A DNA stretch of 9,543 nt, from NCBI GenBank assembly GCA_016218905.1, contig JACRCS010000577.1, forward strand, positions 1 through 9,543, read 5' to 3'. The translations under genes and the position numbers were made by a program. Every line of letters starts with the position of its first letter. Positions within the stretch are counted from its first letter, which is position 1. The DNA is from Deltaproteobacteria bacterium. GTDB lineage: Bacteria; Desulfobacterota_C; Deferrisomatia; Deferrisomatales; JACRMM01. Positions 951 to 9,543 of the stretch are shown piece after piece. The notes under the pieces were generated by a model. That model was not told the origin of the DNA. It ran no database searches and saw only the letters and a program-made list of their open reading frames with translations.

Positions 951-1651
951 CCCAAGTGCCTGGGCCGGCTGCGGAATCTGACCGTCGGGGCCTCCGGCGC
1001 GTTCCCGTTTCCCGCCCCCTCCGCAGGCTCCCAAGCTCCCGTTCTCCCGGGCGAAAGCCGTGCCGAACGGCAGTTGGACAGCGTTCCCGTTTCCCAGGTC
1101 GGGCCGTCCATGGCCTGCGCCACGTCCTCGTCATTTGCACCGACTCGCCCCGCTGCCGGGTCGAACGGAAGCCAGTGGCAGGTGGGTGGCTCGTGCGAGG
1201 TCTGCTCGAAGTACGTCACCCAGGGAGAGGCGGAACGGTCCGGCACCATGGTGGGGAAGACCCTTGCGTGCGCCACCTGATCGCCGCGATTCCGTGATGG
1301 AGAACACCGAAGAGACACAGTGACCGAAGATCGAAGGGAGCCATCGAAAGGTGAGCTCCCTTTCTTCGCTTCTGGAGGCGGAACCACCGGTCTACGGGGC
1401 AGGGGAGACTCGGCCTTCAGGCAGGCCGGTGAGGAGCGCTCACAATCGGCTCTCCTCCAGACGAACTCCTTCATAGGCTCCAAGATCGGTAGCGATGCTG
1501 CTACCTGAAGGCGCACAAGGCCTCCTCCGGGCCTCCTACGGAGTAGCTTTGGGCGATCCGTGAGCGCTGGAATGTTCCGCATCTAGGGCGGCGCCCGCAT
1601 CCGACCGAGTGACTCTCGGCGCACGCGGCGCCAGATGCCCCCGCGAGGCGC
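951..1651. other. About 700 bases with no convincing gene
   Basis: Open frames exist on both strands, but none has a ribosome binding site, a recognisable domain or persuasive composition. The visible structure is a 15-base direct repeat GCGTTCCCGTTTCCC at 999-1013 and 1081-1095, and a terminator-like hairpin at 1333-1363. One + frame ending at 1280 contains a CxxC pair near its C-terminus (CEVC), which could be a decayed zinc-binding protein. I cannot support it as a gene. The interval probably marks the switch from conserved chromosome to accessory DNA. Confidence 0.5.
1333..1371 (+). terminator. Terminator-like hairpin
   Basis: AAGGGAGC (1334-1341) pairs perfectly with GCTCCCTT (1355-1362), and a G-T pair extends it by one. 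The loop is 13 bases. A pyrimidine-rich tail (TTTCTTCGCTT) follows on the + strand. No clear gene ends just before it, so it could serve a lost gene. Confidence 0.35.
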
Positions 1652-1684
1652 TTGCGGTTTGTATATCGCTTACATATACTAAAC
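1652..1684 (+). promoter_or_regulatory. brnTA promoter with overlapping operator dyad
   Basis: A -35-like TTGCGG (1652-1657), a 17-base spacer and TATACT (1675-1680) precede brnT. Over the same bases lies an imperfect dyad, GTTTGTATAT (1657-1666) / ATATACTAAAC (1674-1684), with one bulged base. TATA-rich dyads over the core promoter are expected where the ribbon-helix-helix antitoxin BrnA autoregulates. The predicted transcription start (about 1687) coincides with the brnT ATG. Confidence 0.6.
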
Positions 1685-1686
1685 AA

Positions 1687-2010
1687 ATGAGGCCGCCAGA
1701 GATCCTCCAGCGCTGTACGGGGTTCGACTGGGACGAGGGCAATCGGGACAAGAACTGGGCTAAGCATGGGGTTTCCGACTCCGAAGCGGAGCAGGTGTTC
1801 TTCAACCGGCCGGTCGTGATCGCTGCCGATCCCCAGCACTCGGGCGCGGAGAGGAGATTTCTCGTCCTAGGGTGTACCGATGCCGGCCGAAGGCTGTTTA
1901 TCGCTTTCACGGTCCGACGGGACATGGTCCGAGTGATCTCCGCCAGAGACATGACCCGGAAGGAAGTTCAAGGATATGAGCGCCATGCGAAAAGGAATCC
2001 CGGTCTTTAA
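1687..2010 (+). CDS. brnT: BrnT-family toxin (DUF497 ribonuclease)
   Basis: The 107-residue product matches the BrnT family, RelE-like-fold ribonucleases that block translation by cutting RNA and are neutralised by BrnA. Family hallmarks are visible in order: FDWDEGNRDKNWAKHGVS at 13-30, followed by the DSEAEQVF helix; GAERRFLVLGCTDAGRRL at 53-70; the FTVRRDMVRVISARDM strand-turn at 74-89; and a terminal helix with KEVQGYER. I chose the ATG at 1687 because conserved sequence begins just after it. The upstream in-frame extension to 1609 lacks family features and would run through the promoter. No Shine-Dalgarno sequence precedes the ATG, and the promoter geometry suggests a leaderless mRNA. 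The gene overlaps brnA by 35 bases. Its composition is more A/T-rich than its neighbours, consistent with transfer. Confidence 0.9.
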   Translation: MRPPEILQRCTGFDWDEGNRDKNWAKHGVSDSEAEQVFFNRPVVIAADPQHSGAERRFLVLGCTDAGRRLFIAFTVRRDMVRVISARDMTRKEVQGYERHAKRNPGL

Positions 2011-2260
2011 GAGCGAAGAGGAAGAGCGAGAGTTCTGGGCTACGCATGATTCGGCCGAGTATGTAGACTGGTCGAAGGCGGAGGAGGTCGCTTTCCCGAA
2101 CCTCAAGCCTACCCTCAGGACGATTTCACTTCGTCTGCCGGAATCAATGATTGAGGAGCTGAAGCTTCTCGCAAACAAACGGGATGTCCCGTATCAGTCG
2201 CTGTTGAAGATGTTCTTGGCAGAGAGAATTCAGCAGGAGCTTCGGGAATTGCGTTCTTAA
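1976..2260 (+). CDS. brnA: BrnA-type antitoxin (CopG/ribbon-helix-helix)
   Basis: The 94-residue antitoxin is expected to bind and inhibit BrnT and to repress the shared promoter. The N-terminal half (FKSEEEEREFWATHDSAEYV, then DWSKAEEVAFPNLK) is the acidic BrnA/CopG antitoxin segment that contacts toxin. Residues 48-90 are a ribbon-helix-helix: strand RTISLRLPE, then two helices through LLANKRDVPYQSLLKMFLAERI. The start at 1976 has AAGGA a few bases upstream. A second in-frame ATG at 1985 is an alternative. The gene overlaps the end of brnT by 35 bases, so the two are translated from one mRNA. Toxin-first order is normal for brnTA. Codons with A/T in third position are more common than in flanking genes. 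Confidence 0.88.
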   Translation: MSAMRKGIPVFKSEEEEREFWATHDSAEYVDWSKAEEVAFPNLKPTLRTISLRLPESMIEELKLLANKRDVPYQSLLKMFLAERIQQELRELRS

Positions 2261-2387
2261 AGTACCCTCCGCTCCGGGACGCGCTCGCTTCAGTTCTGTC
2301 CAAAGAACCGAGTTCCCGAGCGAGCTGAGATGCTGATCTGATGCGAAGAAGCGAGGGTTAGATGCCCGGACAACCTCATTTGCGACC

Positions 2388-3043
2388 CTAATGACAAGTG
2401 CCCGGTGGGGTCGAGCCTTTACAGAAAGGTGGGGAAACTAGTCCTTGGGTGGGGTCGAATTTTGCTCGTGTATCGAAAGAAGCACGCGAATCCGGGCAGA
2501 ATTTAGATCCGACTGGACCCCAAGCGGACTTGGACGAACCCAATTTCACTCGTTTCCCCCTATCCGGTGGCCGCAGCCACCTTGCCAGGAAGCGGCGTCT
2601 GTGCCACACGAACGGTATGCGGCCCCGAGCTTGTCTGTCGAAGGTTTCCCGGTCGAACGTGATCGTCATGATCAAGACCTCGTTGTCGAATCCCACCTCC
2701 CACGCGATGCGGCCGATCTTCTGCTCCATTTCCGAGGTGACGACCGGCAGGATCACGCAGACGTCGAGGTCCGACCCCCATGTCGCGTCGCCACGGGCGC
2801 GAGAACCGTAGGCAAGCACCCTGGCCGTCGGGTACACGGTTCGCACCCTCTCGGCGAAGAGGTCGAGCCCCAGCCCGTGCAGGACCCGGAGGGTCTTCGC
2901 CAGGGAAGCGCCTTCCTTCCCGTTCTCGAGGTCCGACAGGACCGTGTCCCTACGCCGCAGAGCGCCGCGGCCTCTGCCTGGCGCAGGCCTTCGGCCTTGC
3001 GCTTCTCCCGGACCGCCGCACCGACGTCGCTGGCGGAGCGCAC
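2388..3043 (-). pseudogene. HipB-like HTH fused to a minimal nucleotidyltransferase, frameshifted
   Basis: Two frames together spell one protein. From a GTG at 3043 (alternative TTG at 3085) one frame gives an Xre/HipB-like helix-turn-helix start: ASDVGAAVREKRKAEGLRQ, then AEAAALCGVGTR. The second frame continues the same domain with LSDLENGKEGASLAKTLRVL and HGLGLDLF, then runs directly into a nucleotidyltransferase domain: RVLAYGSRARGD, then SDLDVCVIL (GSx10DxD), and FDNEVLIMTITFD. The junction at 2940-2944 needs one extra base, so a single-base deletion is inferred. The domain match ends near 2610; the tail to the stop at 2388 is unrecognised and may follow a second lesion. HTH plus nucleotidyltransferase suggests an autoregulated antitoxin or modifying enzyme, supported by the operators just upstream. 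It could be intact in the organism if the missing base is an assembly error. Confidence 0.72.
2404..2526. repeat. TGGGGTC-containing repeats between brnA and the nucleotidyltransferase
   Basis: GGTGGGGTCGA occurs at 2404-2414 and again at 2448-2458. An inverted relative, GACTGGACCCCA, lies near 2510-2521. AATTTTGC (about 2458-2465) and GCAGAATTT (about 2497-2505) form a further partial inverted pair. The TGGGGTC core is shared, in reverse complement, with the repeats at the transposon end near 6511-6547. This may be a relic of a transposon end, or chance in GC-rich DNA. The 3' end of a - strand reading frame runs through it but shows no family features there. Confidence 0.3.
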
Positions 3044-3047
3044 GATT

Positions 3048-3160
3048 TTCCCGCTCGGGCAAATATCACGTATATCGAGCCTCAATAGGCCTCAATCTTC
3101 CCGATCGGGAATATCGCGACGATCGGCGTCGAAGGCAAGGGAAATTTTCCCGTTCGGGAA
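3048..3160. promoter_or_regulatory. Three palindromic operators, TTCCCG-NN-CGGGAA
   Basis: Copies lie at 3048-3061 (TTCCCGCTCGGGCA, one mismatch), 3098-3111 (TTCCCGATCGGGAA, perfect) and 3147-3160 (TTCCCGTTCGGGAA, perfect arms). Their centres are 50 and 49 bases apart. The first sits immediately upstream of the GTG start of the HTH-nucleotidyltransferase, over the region where its ribosome binding site would be. They are the natural candidates for autoregulatory binding by that gene's HTH. An A/T-rich pocket (3061-3076) between copies one and two is the likeliest -10 region for the - strand promoter. Confidence 0.65.
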
Positions 3161-3162
3161 TG

Positions 3163-3228
3163 CTAGCAGGTGGAGTTGACGTCGTCTCGGGACCAGACCT
3201 GGACGGCAACCCTTTTGCCGGACTTCAT
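3163..3228 (-). pseudogene. Relic: last ~20 codons of a second hicB
   Basis: On the - strand this piece reads MKSGKRVAVQVWSRDDVNST-Cys-stop, closely matching the C-terminus of the intact hicB in this window (GKKISVQVWSGDEVSSTC). At DNA level, 3166-3206 and 5521-5561 match at 37 of 41 positions. Nothing upstream of about 3228 continues the HicB fold. By 3276 the sequence is the end of the hepT-like gene, so the rest of this hicB has been lost. Its stop codon lies two bases from the third palindromic operator. Confidence 0.75.
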
Positions 3229-3275
3229 CTGGCAGTGGGGGAGGCGAGAGAGTGTCGTCGTGAGCGCCCCTGTCG

Positions 3276-3709
3276 TCAGGGAAGGTCGTCCAGGAAGTCC
3301 GCGAAAGCAGAAAGCTCGATGCGCAGATCGTCCCAAAGCGGGGGGATCTTCGACAAGGTCCGAGATCCGAACCGGCGGTACTCGTCGAGCCCTTCGACAC
3401 TCGCTCGCTTCAGGACGGCCGGTCGAATCCCCTCGACTTCGCGAGTCATCGAGAGGAGCAACTGCTCGTGCCAGGACTGCCCTGAGTGTGCAGCGCCGTC
3501 CCAGATTGCGGGCGACGAGTTCGAGGAGCCGCTCGAGGCCTGAATAGAATCCGTGAAGGTTGAGGGCCGACCGAGTCGAGGTAGAGGTCTCGGTCTTCGC
3601 CAGCCTCCTGGACGTTCGCCCACGCGCGCGCTATCCGGGACACCGCGCGATCGAGATCGTTCAACTCACCCCGAATACGGCACGCGAGCTGTCGGGGGAC
3701 GGCGCTCAA
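3276..3709 (-). pseudogene. hepT: HepT-like HEPN ribonuclease toxin, frameshifted and internally deleted
   Basis: Three frames add up to one HEPN-fold protein. Frame one, from TTG 3709, gives ELNDLDRAVSRIARAW, then ANVQEAGEDRDLYLDSV. The second gives ALNLHGFYSGLERLLELV, then ARNL. The third gives DGAAHSGQSWHEQLLLSM, then REVEGIRPAVL and, after EYRRF, PPLWDDLRIELSAFADFLDDL. Two single-G insertions explain the shifts, near 3567-3568 and 3500-3502. HepT proteins degrade or nick RNA (tRNA in known cases) through an R-x4-6-H motif and are inactivated by AMPylation by MntA. Here the segment after EYRRF, where family members carry the RHxxRxxY-type motif, is missing by roughly 15 residues, judged from memory of the family. 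The TTG start overlaps the TGA of mntA, with a strong GAGGAGGGG upstream, so the pair was translationally coupled. Probably a dead toxin. Confidence 0.78.
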
Positions 3710-4089
3710 AGCTCCAACCCCTCCTCGTCGATCGAGTCACGCAGTGAGGGGCTGGCAGCCTCATACTCCACGACATCGACCTCCCGGCCGGGGAAGAATC
3801 CCTCCGCCCGACGCCAGGCGCGCCAATAGGCACCTGCGGGAAGCCCCTCGACTGCCAGGTCCACGTCAGAGGACGGCTCGAACCACGCCTGGTGTGCGAG
3901 GGATCCGAAGAGAACGACCCGGGCGGCGCCGAACTCCGTCTTCAGGGCTCTCGCGGCCTCTCGGGCGGAATCGAGCAGGCGCTGACGCTCCGTTTGCCCT
4001 TCTACGCTGGTGCTAATGGGGACTCGGGACTGAAAAGCCTCAACGAACCGCTTCCATCCTTCCGGACCCAGTTCCAGGGCTGTCGCCAT
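3706..4089 (-). CDS. mntA: MntA-type nucleotidyltransferase antitoxin
   Basis: The 127-residue minimal nucleotidyltransferase of the MntA/HepT type would transfer AMP from ATP to a tyrosine of the HEPN toxin and so silence it. After a helical N-terminus, residues 56-81 carry the family signature: ARVVLFGSLAHQ followed by SSDVDLAVEGL. Gly62-Ser63 and Asp75/Asp77 are the metal-binding pair. A third acidic residue is Asp105, in GREVDVVEYE. The ATG at 4089 is chosen because AAAGG precedes it and family homology begins after it; the longer open frame to 4227 has no family features. The stop overlaps the start codon of the hepT-like gene (TTGA). The antitoxin appears intact while its partner is broken, which is the safe order of decay. 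Confidence 0.85.
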   Translation of the reverse strand: MATALELGPEGWKRFVEAFQSRVPISTSVEGQTERQRLLDSAREAARALKTEFGAARVVLFGSLAHQAWFEPSSDVDLAVEGLPAGAYWRAWRRAEGFFPGREVDVVEYEAASPSLRDSIDEEGLEL

Positions 4090-4341
4090 TTGCCTTTCTC
4101 CCTCAGCAGTCGAAGTGCTCGCCGGTCCCGGCTCATGGCTCACTCTATCACACTCGACCGAAGGGGCGGGAGCCCGGTACCGAACTGGTCGAACCGGGGA
4201 TATCCGAGGGAACAACAACCTACGCAACCTACCTACGTCCCGCCAGCCGTCCCGGGAAAGAGACGACCAACCCGCCGTCGTCAGCGTCTGGGGTGAAGCT
4301 TGCGGCGTAGGTGAAGATCATCTCGCCCTACGAGTGCTCTG

Positions 4342-4767
4342 CTATCGCGCATCGCGGAACGGGTTCAGGACACGCACGCCGGTCTCGGCGAAGTCTCCGT
4401 CGTTTCGCGTGACTACGGTGAGATCGTGGACGAGGGCAGTCGCCGCGATCTGCTTATCCAAGGCGTTCTCTGGGTGCGGGACCCGGAGTCGGCCCCAGAC
4501 CTGTGCCGCTTCTTCGCCGAATTCGAGGATGCTCTCTTCGTAGTCGAGGAGGAGCTGAGTCAGCCACGCGTCCAGCGTCTCTGCCTGGACGACGTCACCC
4601 CTGTGCCGAATGAGCTCCACCCCGCGCCGAAGCTCGCCGACGGTCACGACCGAGACATAGACCGGAATCCCCTCCGAGACGGCTCGATCGAAGAAGGCCC
4701 GGACACCGGGGTTGGCTCGCGAGCTCTTGCGCACCTCGCTAATGACGTTGGTGTCAACCAAGTACAT
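4342..4767 (-). CDS. vapC: VapC-family PIN-domain toxin ribonuclease
   Basis: The 141-residue PIN-domain endoribonuclease is the toxin of a VapBC (FitAB-like) pair. VapC proteins cut tRNA or rRNA using an acidic Mg2+ site. The site is complete here: Asp5 in YLVDTNVISEV, Glu45 in VTVGELRRG, Asp104 in ENALDKQIAATA and Asp123/Asp125 in VVTRNDGDF. The C-terminal GVRVLNPF is the usual end of the fold. The ATG at 4767 is preferred over the longer open frame because MYLVDTN is the canonical VapC start. A GGAG lies about ten bases upstream, inside the end of vapB, with which it overlaps by 14 bases. Length is normal for the family and no lesion is seen. Confidence 0.93.
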   Translation of the reverse strand: MYLVDTNVISEVRKSSRANPGVRAFFDRAVSEGIPVYVSVVTVGELRRGVELIRHRGDVVQAETLDAWLTQLLLDYEESILEFGEEAAQVWGRLRVPHPENALDKQIAATALVHDLTVVTRNDGDFAETGVRVLNPFRDAR

Positions 4768-4990
4768 CGGGAGCGCTCCGCGAGTCTTCCACGCGCCCGA
4801 AATCCTCGTCCCGTCCGGCGTCGGGCATGGACGCCAGGACCTCCGCAAAGCTCCGCCGAACCGGACGCCGGAGTGCCTCCTCCAGGATCCGCCGATGCTC
4901 GGCTTCCGCGCTGACGCCGTGACGCGCCGCCCGCTGCTTCAACGCCGTCACGATCGCCTCGTCGAGGTTCCGCACGATGAGATTCGCCAT
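4754..4990 (-). CDS. vapB: VapB/FitA-type ribbon-helix-helix antitoxin
   Basis: The 78-residue antitoxin for the adjacent VapC belongs to the FitA-like ribbon-helix-helix group. The N-terminal ANLIVRNLDEAIVTALKQRA forms the DNA-binding strand and first helix. GVSAEAEHRRILEEAL is the characteristic second helix. The C-terminal part (FAEVLASMPDAG, then DEDFGR) is the tail that wraps around the toxin active site. The ATG at 4990 has GGAGGAG just upstream; the in-frame extension to 5026 would run through the operator. It is the first gene of the operon and overlaps vapC by 14 bases. FitA-type proteins bind the promoter as a toxin-antitoxin complex, and a perfect dyad lies directly upstream. Confidence 0.92.
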   Translation of the reverse strand: MANLIVRNLDEAIVTALKQRAARHGVSAEAEHRRILEEALRRPVRRSFAEVLASMPDAGRDEDFGRVEDSRSAPDVLG

Positions 4991-5008
4991 GGGTTCTCCT
5001 CCGTGTGA

Positions 5009-5045
5009 TGCTATCAATGATAGCAAGGCGCGGTCGGCTGGGCAA
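5009..5045 (-). promoter_or_regulatory. vapBC promoter with perfect 17-bp operator
   Basis: On the - strand, TTGCCC (5045-5040), a 17-base spacer and TATCAT (5022-5017) form a sigma-70-type promoter. The 17-bp perfect palindrome TGCTATCAATGATAGCA (5009-5025) covers the -10 box and the predicted start point. VapB/FitA binding there would block RNA polymerase directly. Confidence 0.75.
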
Positions 5046-5517
5046 CGGTGGAGAAGGAGGCCTCGGACGAGCCGCAGACGGCCCGGTGGGCGCCAAGGCG
5101 GAAAACCAGCAGGGAAGGGAGGTTACGTCCCTCTCGAGGTCACCTTAGGGCAATCGGCCCTAGCGCCATTAGGGCGATCCTAATGTGGCCCGATTAGGGC
5201 GAACCTTGAATGGCTCCAGGGGGCGATCCGCAACACCTTCCGGAACCCGGAAGTCCGGAGCGCTTCCGACGAAGCGCCCAGATCGGAGGAGACGGAGATC
5301 GCAGCGGGGCCCCTTCTTGGCAAGGCGACGGCCTCCGAGTTAAGAAATCAGGAGCGTCCCCCAGACCCGGCCCTACGGAGAGGGGGGCTGATGGTCCGGC
5401 TGGCGATCATCGAGCATGACTGCAACGGCGCGAAGCCTGCCGCCCGGGCAAGGGCTCGATCGTGACCAACGAGGAGGAAGCTGGTAGGCAGCCGGCCGGA
5501 GGTAACGCCGGCGGATG
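5046..5517. other. Gene-free interval between vapBC and hicAB
   Basis: No convincing gene is seen. It holds the TAGGGC dyad cluster at 5145-5202. A + frame is open from 5184 to a TGA near 5462 and reads plausibly for a time (EWLQGAIRNTFRNPEVRSA), but it has no start codon at its beginning and no family I recognise. It could be a decayed gene end. The region lies upstream of the vapBC promoter and downstream of hicB. Confidence 0.45.
5145..5202. repeat. Cluster of three TAGGGC dyads
   Basis: Three inverted repeats with similar arms and five-base spacers follow one another: TAGGGC/GCCCTA (5146-5162), ATTAGG/CCTAAT (5168-5184) and GCCC/GGGC (5188-5200). TTAGGGC is common to all, beginning at 5145, 5169 and 5194, spaced 24 and 25 bases. 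This looks like a multi-site operator or a set of transposon-end repeats. No adjacent gene that would use it is evident. Confidence 0.5.
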
Positions 5518-5970
5518 TCAGCAGGTTGAGCTGACTTCGTCTCCGGACCAGACCTGGACGGAGATCTTCTTTCCAAGCGCGTGGAGAGCGCGCTCCAGAG
5601 TCGGGGTCTTGGTGGGGTGGTGGGGATCGAGGATTCTTCGTGCCTCCTTCTCATTTAGATCGAGGCGACGAGCCAGCTCCGATTTGGAGACCTTCATCTC
5701 TCGAAGGGCGAGGTAGAGCGCTGCCTTCAACGCCGTATGCACGGGGACTGAAACCATACACTCGTCGGCCACGGCCGGGCTGGGCATCGGGATCTCGAGA
5801 CCAGCCCCGATGCGATACTCCAACGCGGCTTCCAGGGCTCCTTCGGCCTCTTGGACGCACGCTTCGGGGGTATCTCCCTGGGTGATCGCTTCCGGCAGAT
5901 CGCGGAAAGAAACGACGAACCCACCATCCTCAGGGTCGGGCGAGAGCTTTGCCGGGTAGCTGAAGTTCAT
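5518..5970 (-). CDS. hicB: HicB antitoxin with C-terminal HTH domain
   Basis: The 150-residue antitoxin binds the HicA RNase and regulates the operon. Residues 1-65 are the partially degraded RNase-H-like HicB fold: FSYPAKLSPDPEDGGFVVSF, then RDLPEAITQGDT and EACVQEAEGALEAALEYRI. Residues ~80-140 form an Xre-like helix-turn-helix: ALREMKVSKSELARRLDL, NEKEARRIL, then PTLERALHALGKKISVQVW. The ATG at 5970 has AGAAGG a few bases upstream. It follows hicA by eight bases, in toxin-first order. The longer open frame upstream of the ATG is the hicA region read in another frame. The last ~20 codons have a near copy at 3163-3228, showing that a second hicB once existed nearby. It appears complete and functional. 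Confidence 0.93.
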   Translation of the reverse strand: MNFSYPAKLSPDPEDGGFVVSFRDLPEAITQGDTPEACVQEAEGALEAALEYRIGAGLEIPMPSPAVADECMVSVPVHTALKAALYLALREMKVSKSELARRLDLNEKEARRILDPHHPTKTPTLERALHALGKKISVQVWSGDEVSSTC

Positions 5971-5978
5971 GGCGCCTT

Positions 5979-6191
5979 CTACAGGTCTTCGATGGTCAGG
6001 CCAAGTTGGGCGAGCATGGCGTGGAGGGTCCCCTTCTTCAGTTCGTCCTTCGGGTTCCTGACGACGGTGCGGCGCTTGCCCACCACCAGAACGCCGTGAC
6101 TCCCTTTGCCGAGCTCCGGATGCCATTCGAACGGTAATTCTCGGATTTTCGCATATGCTCGGACTCGGCGAACGAACTCAGAACCCTTCAT
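5979..6191 (-). CDS. hicA: HicA toxin (mRNA interferase)
   Basis: The 70-residue HicA has a double-stranded-RNA-binding-like fold and cuts mRNA independently of the ribosome, with one essential histidine. The family pattern is clear: KGSEFVRRVRAY at the N-terminus, KGSHGVLVVGKRRTVVRNP with catalytic His32, and the C-terminal KKGTLHAMLAQLGLTIEDL helix. ATG 6191 is preferred to GTG 6203 because the predicted transcription start lies at about 6202. That leaves a leader of roughly ten bases containing GAGCAGGG. Slightly longer than many HicA proteins because of a few extra residues before the GSHG motif. First gene of the hicAB operon. Confidence 0.92.
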   Translation of the reverse strand: MKGSEFVRRVRAYAKIRELPFEWHPELGKGSHGVLVVGKRRTVVRNPKDELKKGTLHAMLAQLGLTIEDL

Positions 6192-6208
6192 CCCTGCTCT
6201 CACTCCAA

Positions 6209-6322: not shown

Positions 6323-6511
6323 TCAGCGGCGGAGGGGCTCAAAGGCCGATCGGGCGGGGAGGGCGATCAGCGGCAACTTGGCCGCCTCAAAGACGCCGCT
6401 CACGAAGTCGTCCCGCTCCTTCCGGTCCTGTCGGTCATGGCTTCGGTCGTTGAGCTCCACTCCGAGAATGGGCGAGCCGGTCTGCGGGTCACAGACTTGG
6501 ACGCTCACCGG
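6323..6511 (-). pseudogene. C-terminal remnant of a DUF2726 protein, cut by the transposon
   Basis: The - strand frame reads VQVCDPQTGSPILGVELND, then RSHDRQDRKERDDFV, ending AAKLPLIALPARSAFEP and a TGA at 6323-6325. This is the core of the DUF2726 domain, a restriction-endonuclease-like fold whose biochemical role is not established. Family members normally have an N-terminal part before the VCDPxTG strand. Here that part is replaced by the repeated sequence of the transposon end, and the frame's apparent GTG start (6523) falls inside that repeat. I infer that the transposon inserted into the gene or caused a deletion next to it. The fragment is unlikely to be expressed as a functional protein. 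Confidence 0.75.
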
Positions 6512-6547
6512 ACCTGACCCCACCCCTGCTCACGTGACCTGACCCCA
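6511..6547 (+). repeat. Direct 12-bp repeats at the transposon left end
   Basis: GACCTGACCCCA occurs at 6511-6522 and 6536-6547, 25 bases apart. IS21-family ends usually contain several short repeats that serve as transposase binding sites. The second copy is preceded by a T (TG dinucleotide at 6535-6536) and followed by TTGTGAAG. Confidence 0.6.
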
Positions 6548-6608
6548 TTGTGAAGTCCGGCGCGAACGGGTCGCGTCGTCATTCCTTCAGAACGGCTGGT
6601 GGCCCACG

Positions 6609-6628
6609 TTTCTCCTGGAAAGGAGGAG
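6609..6628 (+). promoter_or_regulatory. Hairpin that sequesters the Shine-Dalgarno of the first transposon gene
   Basis: TTTCTCCT (6609-6616) can pair with AGGAGGAG (6621-6628) around loop GGAA, a GNRA-type tetraloop. There are six Watson-Crick and two G-T pairs. The 3' arm contains the perfect AGGAGG (6621-6626) that lies six bases before the GTG at 6633. Folding would hide the ribosome binding site. Confidence 0.6.
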
Positions 6629-6632
6629 CGAC

Positions 6633-7043
6633 GTGGTCCGCAAACGCCCGTGCAGCATCTGTCGAAAGTGGTTCCTCCCGAGCCCCCGCGCGGGACCTCG
6701 CCAGCACGTCTGCCCGAATCCCGATTGCCAGAGAGAACGTCACCGCCGCAACTGCGCCTCGTGGCGGCGGCGCAATCCCGACTACGACCGCGAGACCCGT
6801 CTGCGGGCCCGGCTCGCCGCCGACCGGCCTGAGCCGCCGGAGCCTGACCTACTTTCCTGGACGAGCGCGCGAGACTTAGTGGGGCTCGAAGTGCTTGTCG
6901 TGCTTGAGGAAACTCGCCAACTCTTCGTGGATGTCGCGCGAGACTCGGTCGCGCGCCAAGTGCTTGTCACCAAAGGGAAATCTGGCGAAGTCCTCCGGCT
7001 TGCCCGCGAGACGCCATCGACCGAGGGGCTGCTGCCTCCGTAG
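6633..7043 (+). CDS. Zinc-finger-like accessory protein of the transposon
   Basis: The 136-residue protein is of unestablished function. GTG 6633 is fixed by AGGAGG six bases upstream. Cys7-x2-Cys10 (CSICRKWF) and Cys27-x4-Cys32 (CPNPDCQRERHRR) look like one zinc-binding knuckle. A strongly basic helix follows (RRNCASWRRRNPDYDRETRL), suggesting nucleic-acid or protein binding. The C-terminal half (ARDLVGLEVLVVLEETRQL, then ARDSVARQVLVT) alternates charged and hydrophobic residues and looks folded. From memory, small cysteine-rich proteins of this kind are found beside IS21-like transposases in several phyla, usually as hypothetical proteins. It ends 35 bases before the ParB-like ATG (two bases before an alternative TTG). 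An adaptor in target choice or transposase regulation is inference. Confidence 0.75.
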   Translation: MVRKRPCSICRKWFLPSPRAGPRQHVCPNPDCQRERHRRNCASWRRRNPDYDRETRLRARLAADRPEPPEPDLLSWTSARDLVGLEVLVVLEETRQLFVDVARDSVARQVLVTKGKSGEVLRLARETPSTEGLLPP

Positions 7044-7078
7044 ACTTGCCGAGCACTCGGACGGGTGACGGGACGGAC

Positions 7079-8080
7079 ATGCAGATCGAGCTCCATCAGA
7101 TGGCTCTACGCTACGAAGCGCTTCGGATCGCCGATCCGGCCAGGCAAGCGCGGATGACCGCCTCCATCGCGGAGGTCGGCCAGCAGTCGCCGGTGTTGGT
7201 GGTGGGAACCGAGGCTCCCTTTGTTCTGATCGACGGCTACTGCCGAGCCCGGGCGATGCGTACCCTTCGCCGCGACACCCTCGAGGCCGTCTGCCTCGAC
7301 GTCTGCGAGCCGGAGGCGTTGCTGCTTGCCCATCGGCTCGATCTCGCCCGGCCACGTTCGGCTCTGGAGGAGGGGTGGTTTGTCCAGGAGCTCCACCGGA
7401 CTCACGGGCTGAGCCTTTCCGATCTCGCGCGCAGGTCGGGCCATTCGGTGAGCTGGGTCTCCCGGCGTCTGGCGCTCGTGGAGAGCCTGCCCGATGGCCT
7501 TCAGGAGCTCGTTCGCCGGGGCAAGCTCCCCTCCCATGCCGCGATGAAGGTGCTGGTGCCTTTGGCGCGCGCCAACACGGCCCACGCGCTCTCGCTCGCG
7601 ACCCGGGCCTGCGAGCTTGCCCAACGGCTCTCGGCACGCCAGTGGGAGGCGCTCTACACCGCCTATCGCAAGGCGGCTCCGGAGATCCGAAGCCGCATCG
7701 TCGAGCATCCCGGGCTCTTCGTCCGAGTCAGTGAGGAGCAGCGCCGGCCTGAGGCACCGAGCCCGAAGTCCGCGGTAGAGGTCTTGCTGTCGGACCTGGA
7801 GGCTCTTTCGGCGATTTGCCGCCGGGCCCGGCGAAGACTTCGAGAGTTTTCCCCCACCGAACTCGACGAGCCGAGCCTCACGGCCTGCCTCGAGCCCGCC
7901 TGGGCCTCGGCGCGGGCCGATTTCGATGCCCTTTCCCGCCTCTCTTCGGAGCGCCTGCGTGAGAACCGACTTCGAGACCAGGACGGCTGTCCTTCGCCTT
8001 CACCGGCAGGGCCACGGCCTGAAGACCATTGCGCGTACCCTCGGGATCTCCAAGAACACGGTCAAACGGCTGGTCTTTGA
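7079..8080 (+). CDS. ParB/Spo0J-family protein of the transposon
   Basis: The 333-residue protein has a ParB N-terminal domain at about 1-95. Visible elements include IADPARQARMTASIAEVGQQ, SPVLVVG, the box VLIDGYCRARAMRTL (the position of the CTP-binding GERRxRA motif in chromosomal ParB) and HRLDLARPRSALEEG (equivalent to the ENxQRxDLxPxEEA motif). A helix-turn-helix follows at 108-160 (LSLSDLARRSGHSVSWVSRR, then LPDGLQELVRRGKL). Canonical ParB proteins bind parS, load CTP and slide as clamps. Several normally conserved CTP-motif residues differ here, so clamp activity is uncertain. ATG 7079 is chosen over TTG 7046 because the domain begins there. The last 40 codons overlap istA and are proline-rich and unlike ParB. 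No ParA partner is seen. Its place before istA suggests a role in DNA recognition or target choice. Confidence 0.85.
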   Translation: MQIELHQMALRYEALRIADPARQARMTASIAEVGQQSPVLVVGTEAPFVLIDGYCRARAMRTLRRDTLEAVCLDVCEPEALLLAHRLDLARPRSALEEGWFVQELHRTHGLSLSDLARRSGHSVSWVSRRLALVESLPDGLQELVRRGKLPSHAAMKVLVPLARANTAHALSLATRACELAQRLSARQWEALYTAYRKAAPEIRSRIVEHPGLFVRVSEEQRRPEAPSPKSAVEVLLSDLEALSAICRRARRRLREFSPTELDEPSLTACLEPAWASARADFDALSRLSSERLRENRLRDQDGCPSPSPAGPRPEDHCAYPRDLQEHGQTAGL

Positions 8081-9401
8081 AACCGATGCCCCTGCGGCTC
8101 GTGCCTGTGCCCTCGACCCCTACGCCGAGCGCGTCCGGGAGCTCTACCTCGAATGCAAAGGCAACCGCGTCCGTGTCCACGAGGAGCTCGCGAAGGCCGG
8201 AATCTCGGTCCCGTATCCGACGCTGACCCGCTTTGTGCGCCGCCTCGGGCTCGGCGTTCGCGTCCCTGAGCGTTCGGGCCAGTATGACTTCGCCCCCGGC
8301 GCCGAGATGCAGCACGACACCTCGCCCCACACCGTCGAGATCGCCGGAAAGCCGAGGGCCCTCCAGTGTGCTTCGCTCGTCCTTTGCTACTCGCGCATGC
8401 TCTACGCCGAAGTCTTTCCGACCTTCCACCGCTTCTACGCCAAAGTCTTTCTGACCGAAGCGCTCCAGGCGTTCGGGGGAGCCGCAAAGACCTGCATGCT
8501 CGACAACTCGAGCATCATCATCGGGCACGGTACGGGGAAAAACGCCGTGCCCGCCCCGGAGATGGAGGCTTTCAGCGCGCGGTTCGGCTTTACGTTCGCC
8601 GCCCACGAGCTCGGCGACGCCAACCGCTCGGGCCGCGTGGAGAGGCCCTTTCACTTCATCGAGAACAACTTCTACGCGGGCCGGCGGTTCGCAAATCTCG
8701 CCGATCTCAACGAGCAGCTCCGGGCCTGGTGCGAGCAGCAAAACCGCTCGGTCAAGCGCCACTTGCAGGCCTCCCCCCTCGAGCTCTTCGCCGCCGAGCG
8801 CCCCCACCTCCGCGCGCTCCCGCTCTATGTCCCCGAGCCCTACGCCCGGCATCACCGCACCGTGGATCTCGAGGGAAACGTCCACCTGCACACCAACGCC
8901 TATTCCGTTCCCGACGAGCTCATCGGCCGCTCGGTGGAGGTCCACGAAACGAAGACGGCCGTGCGCGTCTTCCACCAGCACCACCTCGTCTGCGAACACG
9001 TCCGGGAGGAGGAAGGGGCGCGCGTGCGAAAAATCCTGCCCGCCCACCAGCACAAGGGGCGTACGCCTCGTTCGACCTCGCGGCCGCCCATCCCCGAGGA
9101 GGCGCTCCTGCGGGCCGCCGGCGAGGAGTTCGCCGAGCTCGTCGGCCGCCTGCGAAAGCTCCACGCCGGCCGCGCCGTGCGGCCGCTTCGCCGACTGCAC
9201 CAACTCTATCTCGACTACCCGACCGAGAGCCTGCGGGCCTGCCTTCGCGAGGCGCTCGCTTACGGCCTGACCGATCTCGACCGCATCGAGCGCATGCTCC
9301 TGCGCGCGCTCTCCGGCGACTTCTTCCGTCTGCCCTCGACCGACGAGCGACCCCACACCCCTCCCGATCCAGGAAACGAGCGCGACGATGATGACCGATG
9401 A
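7959..9401 (+). CDS. istA: IS21-family transposase IstA (DDE)
   Basis: The 480-residue transposase has an N-terminal helix-turn-helix (TRTAVLRLHRQGHGLKTIAR, then TLGISKNTVKRLV) and a second DNA-binding segment at 53-98. The integrase core carries DDE residues Asp120 (MQHDTSPH), Asp182 (MLDNSSI) and Glu228 (GRVERPFHFIENNFY), with spacing normal for the group. The C-terminal beta-barrel follows at about 280-345 (VDLEGNVHLHTNAYSVP). IstA cuts and joins transposon ends and needs IstB for target DNA. GTG 7959 is preferred because GGAG (7948-7951) lies seven bases upstream; ATG 7926 is an alternative. It overlaps the ParB-like frame by 122 bases and istB by 14. No stop or lesion is seen, so it could be active. 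Confidence 0.93.
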   Translation: MRTDFETRTAVLRLHRQGHGLKTIARTLGISKNTVKRLVFETDAPAARACALDPYAERVRELYLECKGNRVRVHEELAKAGISVPYPTLTRFVRRLGLGVRVPERSGQYDFAPGAEMQHDTSPHTVEIAGKPRALQCASLVLCYSRMLYAEVFPTFHRFYAKVFLTEALQAFGGAAKTCMLDNSSIIIGHGTGKNAVPAPEMEAFSARFGFTFAAHELGDANRSGRVERPFHFIENNFYAGRRFANLADLNEQLRAWCEQQNRSVKRHLQASPLELFAAERPHLRALPLYVPEPYARHHRTVDLEGNVHLHTNAYSVPDELIGRSVEVHETKTAVRVFHQHHLVCEHVREEEGARVRKILPAHQHKGRTPRSTSRPPIPEEALLRAAGEEFAELVGRLRKLHAGRAVRPLRRLHQLYLDYPTESLRACLREALAYGLTDLDRIERMLLRALSGDFFRLPSTDERPHTPPDPGNERDDDDR

Positions 9402-9543
9402 CCTCGACCAGCTTCTAAAAACCCTGACGCTGAAAAAGATCCGGGAAATTCTCCCCCGGGAGCTCGATCGGGCCGCGAAAAGCCCACCGAGCTACGCCGA
9501 GTTTCTCGCTCGCCTCCTGCGAGAGGAGGCACTCTTCCGGCGG
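9388..9543 (+). CDS. istB: IstB-type transposition helper ATPase (N-terminal part)
   Basis: The frame is open to the window edge (52 codons). Residues 5-52 (LDQLLKTLTLKKIREILP, then SYAEFLARLLREEALFRR) are the N-terminal helical domain of IstB, the AAA+ ATPase that assembles on target DNA and activates IstA. The Walker motifs would lie beyond the window. Two tandem ATG codons (9388, 9391) are possible starts. Both overlap the end of istA, the usual coupling of istA-istB. Confidence 0.88.
   Translation, partial: MMTDDLDQLLKTLTLKKIREILPRELDRAAKSPPSYAEFLARLLREEALFRR

What the first reader, a model, noticed from the sequence alone, without database searches (positions are those of the whole stretch)
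6511..9543. IS21-type transposon carrying a ParB-family protein and a zinc-finger protein upstream of istAB
Seen: four packed same-strand genes (CxxC protein, ParB domain plus HTH, DDE IstA, start of IstB) beginning next to a repeated end sequence. Known: IS21 elements need only IstA and IstB, and IstB is an AAA+ target regulator comparable to MuB and TnsC. ParB proteins are DNA-binding CTPase clamps. Inference: the ParB-like protein and its small partner form a targeting or regulatory module, perhaps directing insertion to particular sites or controlling copy number. There is no ParA, so ordinary partition is unlikely. I recall similar neighbourhoods in other genomes but know of no assigned function.
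Basis: partly seen in the sequence, partly recalled or inferred. Interest (0 to 1): 0.75.

Follow-up and report, generated by a model that had tools for sequence, protein, structure and literature searches.

The report
Four-gene IS21 transposon with ParB-like module
This is the left end of a jumping DNA element that carries, besides its usual two transposition genes, a zinc-finger-like gene and a ParB-like DNA-binding gene that travel with it, plus an evenly phased set of short DNA repeats that looks like a built-in control switch.

Summary
The four genes belong to one IS21-family transposon. Its left end is at 6496, not 6511; the right end lies beyond the window. Among 102 distinct ParB-like genes, IstA follows in 90 of 94 with enough sequence, a Cys-rich gene precedes in 76 of 79, and in 38 of 39 elements with both ends found all four genes lie between them. 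Seven independent insertions have flush 5-9 bp target duplications. ParB-bearing IstAs form one clade; 35 outside it with upstream sequence show no ParB. The ParB-like protein keeps GxxR but lacks ENxQR, so a CTPase clamp is unproven. Duplicated targets share no evident sequence, so site targeting is not supported. New: the zinc-finger gene carries short direct repeats, conserved as DNA, mostly 67-70 bp apart, otherwise 60, 78-81 or 89, i.e. steps of about 10 bp. They co-vary with the zinc finger and also occur in ParB-less IS21s with another small protein in that slot. I read the extra genes as a swappable regulatory/end-assembly module. The transposon is near certain; the mechanism is about even odds.

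The parts
6496..6547 (+). left terminal repeat: tip CTTGGACGC and two tandem copies, L1 6503-6522 and L2 6528-6547
6633..7043 (+). type-1 Cys-rich (CxxC...CxxxxCQ) basic protein, 136 aa, probable zinc finger (zinc binding inferred from the cysteines, not tested)
   Evidence: no Pfam family above cut-off for the window protein; AF2 mean pLDDT 77.8, first 50 residues about 90 or more
6868..7012 (+). phased repeat array: CGCGAGAC at 6868, 6937, 7005 (spacings 69, 68); a further copy at 6789 (79 before). These are the only four in the window, none on the - strand
   Evidence: in the window the triple score is only marginal (31 against a maximum of 29 in 10 shuffles)
7079..8080 (+). ParB-like protein, 333 aa: ParB-N fold, HTH_ParB, helical C-terminus; 3' end overlaps istA
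7926..9401 (+). istA, IS21 DDE transposase (GTG at 7959 is an alternative start)
9388..9543 (+). istB, first 52 codons, cut by the window end; overlaps istA

Best explanation
A four-gene IS21-family transposon of about 3.7-4.8 kb. IstA pairs the two-repeat ends and joins them to a target; IstB prepares the target (known for IS21, inferred here). The zinc-finger and ParB-like genes are dedicated parts of the element, not cargo. The zinc-finger protein binds a helically phased array of short sites inside the element near its left end. The ParB-like protein binds another sequence, constant across the clade (probably the ends or an operator), and works with the zinc-finger protein, much as KorB works with KorA, to build a nucleoprotein complex that controls expression of the transposition genes and/or assembly of the ends, much as Mu's enhancer does. 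Shown: unit, ends, target duplications, clade, array, phasing. Inferred: who binds what, and the effect.
For: IstA follows the ParB-like gene in 90/94, a Cys-rich gene precedes it in 76/79, and all four lie inside the ends in 38/39. Flush TSDs in seven independent elements. Two copies 99.97% identical over 3897 bp in one single-contig genome. ParB+ IstAs are one clade, 88 of 133 tips. istA sits in the +1 frame of the ParB-like gene in 82 of 94, and one further locus, L006, has both in one ORF. Array score >=34 in 47/63 with the type-1 gene against 2/63 without; copy 3 out of frame with copy 1 in 23/47; third codon positions of copies 1 and 2 identical 156/161 in the core against 281/680 beside it. 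Spacings other than 67-70 fall in steps of about 10 bp: 14 spacings from 9 elements, 1 of 5000 uniform and 0 of 5000 frame-preserving random sets as periodic. Array similarity follows the zinc finger (partial r 0.54, 0/300 permutations), not IstA (-0.03, 189/300) and weakly ParB (0.18, 5/300). ParB HTH helix SxSWVSRRL nearly invariant. Folds like ParB, Noc and KorB.
Against: No binding, expression or transposition data. The array lies inside the zinc-finger gene, so co-variation may be joint inheritance. Array cores were chosen as best matches, which inflates 156/161. 16 of 63 elements with the type-1 gene fall short of the array threshold, and the window's own array is marginal. Elements with the second Cys-rich type (20 of 79) have no detected array, so an array is not needed for every ParB element. 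42 of 50 end pairs show no TSD of 5 bp or more; 11 of the 50 lack 5 bp of flank on a side. Four of 94 ParB-like genes have no IstA found. Most loci came from a ParB profile search, so the ParB-IstA counts are not a random sample.
Confidence: 0.5

Rival explanations
1. Target-selection module: the ParB-like and zinc-finger proteins recruit IstB to chosen DNA, as TniQ/TnsD do for TnsC.
For: IstB is the IS21 counterpart of TnsC; TniQ/TnsD also carry zinc-finger and HTH parts (passages of PMC10293859). The extra genes are fixed in the sampled clade.
Against: Seven TSDs share no evident sequence. Joined flanks give varied places, some inside or at the start of ORFs (ORFs judged by eye). The array core is not specially close to the flanks of 18 loci tested (300 bp each side): best hits per locus 2-6 mismatches, like control cores; L218 had a 2-mismatch hit 187 bp away, equalled by its best control. 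No TniQ hit for either window protein at E 0.01.
Confidence: 0.2
2. The array acts as RNA (translation attenuator or guide-like transcript) rather than as DNA sites.
For: It is transcribed if the operon is; copies often lie outside the frame.
Against: No consensus RNA fold (alifold z -0.46 on 11 elements; mean single-sequence z +0.34 on 30, mononucleotide shuffles). No Rfam hit in the window at gathering thresholds but tRNA. Spacing in steps of about 10 bp points to duplex DNA.
Confidence: 0.12
3. Passenger or self-maintenance genes with no role in transposition (for example host regulation or partition-like stability).
For: ParB fold; orphan ParB proteins are common on mobile elements (passages of PMC12704722).
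Against: In the IstA tree the ParB-bearing tips are one clade and no tip inside it lacks ParB, L006 counted as a shared ORF; overlap with istA and that one shared ORF. ENxQR absent in 120 of 120 listed relatives.
Confidence: 0.13

Closest known systems
IS21 family (IS21, IS5376; istA-istB)
   Same: IstA by NCBIfam, IstB by Pfam in a relative, istA-istB overlap, ends made of two direct repeats each (passages of PMC10122671 and PMC11208146)
   Different: Two extra genes in nearly every sampled member, a phased internal array, and tips that mostly read CTT...AAG rather than the terminal CA described for IS5376
KorB-KorA of plasmid RK2
   Same: ParB-type fold plus a DNA-binding partner; Foldseek hits KorB; KorA stalls the KorB clamp (passages of PMC11790492)
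   Different: Lacks ENxQR; partner is a zinc-finger-like protein, not KorA; clamp not shown
Phage Mu transpositional enhancer
   Same: Internal sites that help assemble the ends (passages of PMC3362531); MuA and MuB are relatives of IstA and IstB
   Different: A separate zinc-finger gene and helically stepped spacing are seen here; no function shown here
Tn7 target selectors (TniQ/TnsD, TnsE, TnsF)
   Same: Extra gene(s) beside a DDE transposase and its AAA+ partner
   Different: No TniQ domain found and no shared target seen. PMC10293859 states that IS21 has not been reported with a target selector (passage)

Membership tests
IS21 family | IstA transposase of IS21 type | tested here: met
   NF033546 167.8 bits, cut-off 160
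IS21 family | IstB AAA+ helper directly after istA | tested here: met
   window has only 52 codons (E 0.0027); relative L217 IstB PF01695 1e-60; IstA+IstB in 52/56 with 2400 bp downstream
IS21 family | ends each with at least two direct repeats | tested here: met
   69 left and 59 right ends listed, found with a profile that spans two tandem repeats; window left end
IS21 family | terminal 3' CA dinucleotide | tested here: inconclusive
   of seven TSD-flush elements the right tip reads ...AAG in five...AGG in one...CAG in one; cleavage sites not mapped; feature described for IS5376 (passages)
IS21 family | short target duplication | tested here: met
   5-9 bp in 8 of 50 end pairs (7 independent; L218 is 7 bp flush or 9 bp one base in), 0.3 expected by re-pairing, maximum 2 in 200 trials; window itself not testable
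Canonical ParB CTPase (ParABS) | ParB fold with HTH | tested here: met
Canonical ParB CTPase (ParABS) | GERR box and ENxQR box for CTP binding and hydrolysis (motif letters recalled; three boxes described in PMC12704722) | tested here: not met
   GERR 3/120, ENxQR 0/120 of listed relatives; GxxR kept
Canonical ParB CTPase (ParABS) | ParA partner gene | not tested
   no ParA search was run; no ParA family among hits of the window proteins scanned
Tn7 TniQ/TnsD target selector | TniQ domain | tested here: not met
   no TniQ among Pfam hits of the two window proteins at E 0.01
Tn7 TniQ/TnsD target selector | fixed or preferred target site | tested here: inconclusive
   seven TSDs without evident common sequence; too few sites to exclude a loose preference

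The most novel reading that the evidence does not exclude
IS21 elements of this clade carry a dedicated, swappable regulator of transposition: a zinc-finger protein that reads a helically phased internal enhancer-like array (its sequence changing in step with the protein), paired with a ParB-fold NTP-dependent clamp, or in other IS21 lineages with a small HTH-type protein in the same slot, that couples the array to the IstA-IstB machine. This would be an accessory control system of an IS21 element and a use of the ParB fold in a transpososome, neither of which my searches showed described.
Probability: 0.33. Interest if true: 0.85.

Novelty: new variant of a known kind. Interest (0 to 1): 0.7.

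Why it matters
IS21 is a simple model (IstA plus IstB) for AAA+-controlled transposition. A clade spread over several phyla with two more genes and a phased DNA array shows that it is not always minimal, and gives a compact system for asking how a ParB-fold protein and an internal array control a transposase. Deleting the array, or shifting its phase by half a helical turn, would test this directly.

Tried and rejected

Rows dropped or added: ParB hits of 80 bits or less; loci repeating the same ParB sequence in those calls; repeated IstA sequences. In the first spacing test I had added three elements by hand (L159, L003, L192), two of them below the array threshold; one search repeats it without them, with a frame-preserving control, and is the one to use. 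Hit L214 holds only the C-terminal part of IstA. A target-preference row that I had first marked 'not met' is now 'inconclusive', as seven sites are few.

Full report
Observation. The window holds, on the + strand, a Cys-rich gene (6633-7043), a ParB-like gene (7079-8080), istA (7926 or 7959 to 9401) and the first 52 codons of istB. IstA passes the NCBIfam IS21 cut-off. The ParB-like protein passes Pfam's HTH_ParB and stays below the TIGR00180 cut-off. A direct repeat lies at 6503-6522 and 6528-6547. No genome is held for the window, so the right end could not be read.

Relatives. A profile of 25 ParB-like proteins matched 149 stretches of public genome contigs; 111 encode a relative and the best 80 loci were kept. 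By their titles these are nearly all metagenome-assembled environmental bacteria: many Acidobacteria, also Deltaproteobacteria and Myxococcales, a Deferrisomatales, Planctomycetota and others. With later genome searches there are 102 distinct ParB-like genes. IstA follows in 90 of the 94 with at least 1400 bp downstream (missing: L051, L080, L118, L126). IstA and IstB follow in 52 of 56 with 2400 bp. A Cys-rich gene precedes it in 76 of 79 with at least 650 bp upstream: 56 of the window's type 1, and 20 of a second type (examples). L014 instead has another Cys-containing ORF not counted here; L122 and L123 have none found. In one phylum-wide sample, 15 of 283 genomes held a ParB-like match at E 1e-25.

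Ends. Many loci carry inverted ends that bound all four genes. Each end has two tandem copies about 24 bp apart of a motif like GCTCGCCAGAATTGACCC behind a tip like CTTCGGC. 69 distinct left and 59 distinct right ends are listed. Of 39 elements with both ends found, 38 hold zinc-finger, ParB-like, istA and istB genes between them; lengths are 3720-4802 bp. In 50 loci with an end pair, 8 have a target duplication of 5 bp or more; re-paired flanks gave 0.3 on average and at most 2 in 200 trials. L068 and L227 are one insertion, so seven are independent: L032 (6 bp), L066 (8), L068 (9), L189 (5, the weakest), L218 (7 flush), L221 (9), L222 (8). The other 42 of 50 show none; 11 of the 50 lack 5 bp of flank on a side, several are repeats of one locus, and the rest are unexplained. 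One single-contig genome has two copies 99.97% identical over 3897 bp; one has a TSD and the other none. In the window, a gapped profile of the 128 ends scores 31.0 at 6496; the next best place scores -4.8 and the best of 40 shuffled windows 9.6.

Does istAB occur without the extra genes? In an IstA tree of 133 tips (midpoint root), the ParB-bearing ones form one clade of 88, counting L006 where both parts lie in one ORF. The 45 others have no ParB found, 35 of them with at least 900 bp of upstream sequence. Searches by IstA alone gave 13 hits at 40% identity or more; one search finds a ParB-like match upstream in 12 (one a 36-bit fragment), and the 13th is a C-terminal fragment of IstA. Seven of the 13 lie in four genomes first reached through ParB loci (G316, G005, G009, G321); the other six, in genomes not so reached, all have ParB. 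istA lies in the +1 frame relative to the ParB-like gene in 82 of 94.

The zinc-finger gene and a swap. The type-1 protein has no Pfam family above cut-off in the window and no convincing fold match. It also matches in ParB-less IS21 elements outside the clade: L164 (same place as L229), L165, L170, L175, L176 and L208 (26-98 bits, so some weak). There, a different small protein sits between it and IstA. Four were scanned: three match the HTH_36 family just below Pfam's cut-off and one (L164) has no hit.

A phased array. In the 3' half of the type-1 gene, and often past its stop, are two or three copies of a short repeat whose sequence differs between elements. A three-copy score of 34 or more occurs in 47 of 63 elements with the type-1 gene (42 of 57 with ParB, 5 of 6 without) and in 2 of 63 without it. 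It is a DNA feature: the third copy is out of frame with the first in 23 of 47, lies past or across the stop in 23 of 47, and third codon positions agree in 156 of 161 in the core against 281 of 680 beside it (the core was picked as the best match, so 156/161 is inflated). In the 47, 80 of 94 spacings are 67-70 bp; the other 14, from 9 elements, are 60, 78-81 and 89, steps of about 10 bp. With these 14, 1 of 5000 uniform random sets and 0 of 5000 sets that keep the codon frame were as periodic; taken once per lineage as I grouped them, again 1 and 0 of 5000. 122 spacings from control elements show little periodicity (R 0.25). Array similarity between 42 ParB elements follows the zinc-finger domain (partial r 0.54, 0 of 300 permutations), not IstA (-0.03, 189 of 300), and ParB weakly (0.18, 5 of 300). 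The gene contains the array, so shared inheritance could explain part or all of this. No RNA fold was found. The core is not specially close to insertion sites; one of 18 loci, L218, had a 2-mismatch hit at 187 bp, which its best control equalled. The window has CGCGAGAC at 6868, 6937 and 7005, and another at 6789, the only four on either strand; its three-copy score is marginal alone (31 against a maximum of 29 in 10 shuffles).

How it probably works. The fixed gene set, the overlap with istA, the one shared ORF and the phased sites point to control of the transposition machine itself. I favour a nucleoprotein switch: the zinc-finger protein on the array, with the ParB-like protein as partner, comparable to KorA-KorB co-repression (PMC11790492, passages) and to Mu's internal enhancer (PMC3362531, passages). 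Targeting remains possible, but the few sites seen are diverse.

Known or new. PMC10293859 states that IS21 has not been reported with a target selector (passage). My searches covered an open-access library only and showed no description of this element. ISfinder and subscription papers were not available. I file it as a new variant of the IS21 family.

Noticed in passing
window 1609-6203: Between a tRNA-Gly gene (766-840) and the transposon lies a run of toxin-antitoxin-type genes: BrnT with a CopG-type antitoxin (+), nucleotidyltransferase ORFs and a HepT-like ORF (-), a PIN protein with a FitA-like antitoxin (-), HicB-like with HicA-like (-). HicA passes its Pfam cut-off; HicB is just below.
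   Followed up: partly
window 3048-3160: Three palindrome-like copies of TTCCCGNTCGGG at 3048, 3098 and 3147, 49-50 bp apart, beside a nucleotidyltransferase ORF on the - strand; 6 matches with up to 1 mismatch in the window (both strands) against 0.78 expected.
   Followed up: partly
window 3163-3220 and 5518-5575: Similar stretches; the first encodes a piece like the C-terminus of the HicB-like ORF at 5518-5970, perhaps a second, decayed hicB (read by eye).
   Followed up: no
L006 5989-7170: In Enhygromyxa salina SWB007 the ParB-like and IstA parts lie in one open frame up to the contig end.
   Followed up: partly
L002, L007, L009, L020, L029, L045 and others, upstream of ParB: A second kind of Cys-rich basic protein replaces the type-1 protein in 20 of 79 elements; arrays were not detected in the ones scanned (sequences).
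   Followed up: partly
L054, L064, L074, L217 left ends: A third end-type repeat (GCTCTCCAGAATCGGCCAC) lies further inside the left end.
   Followed up: no
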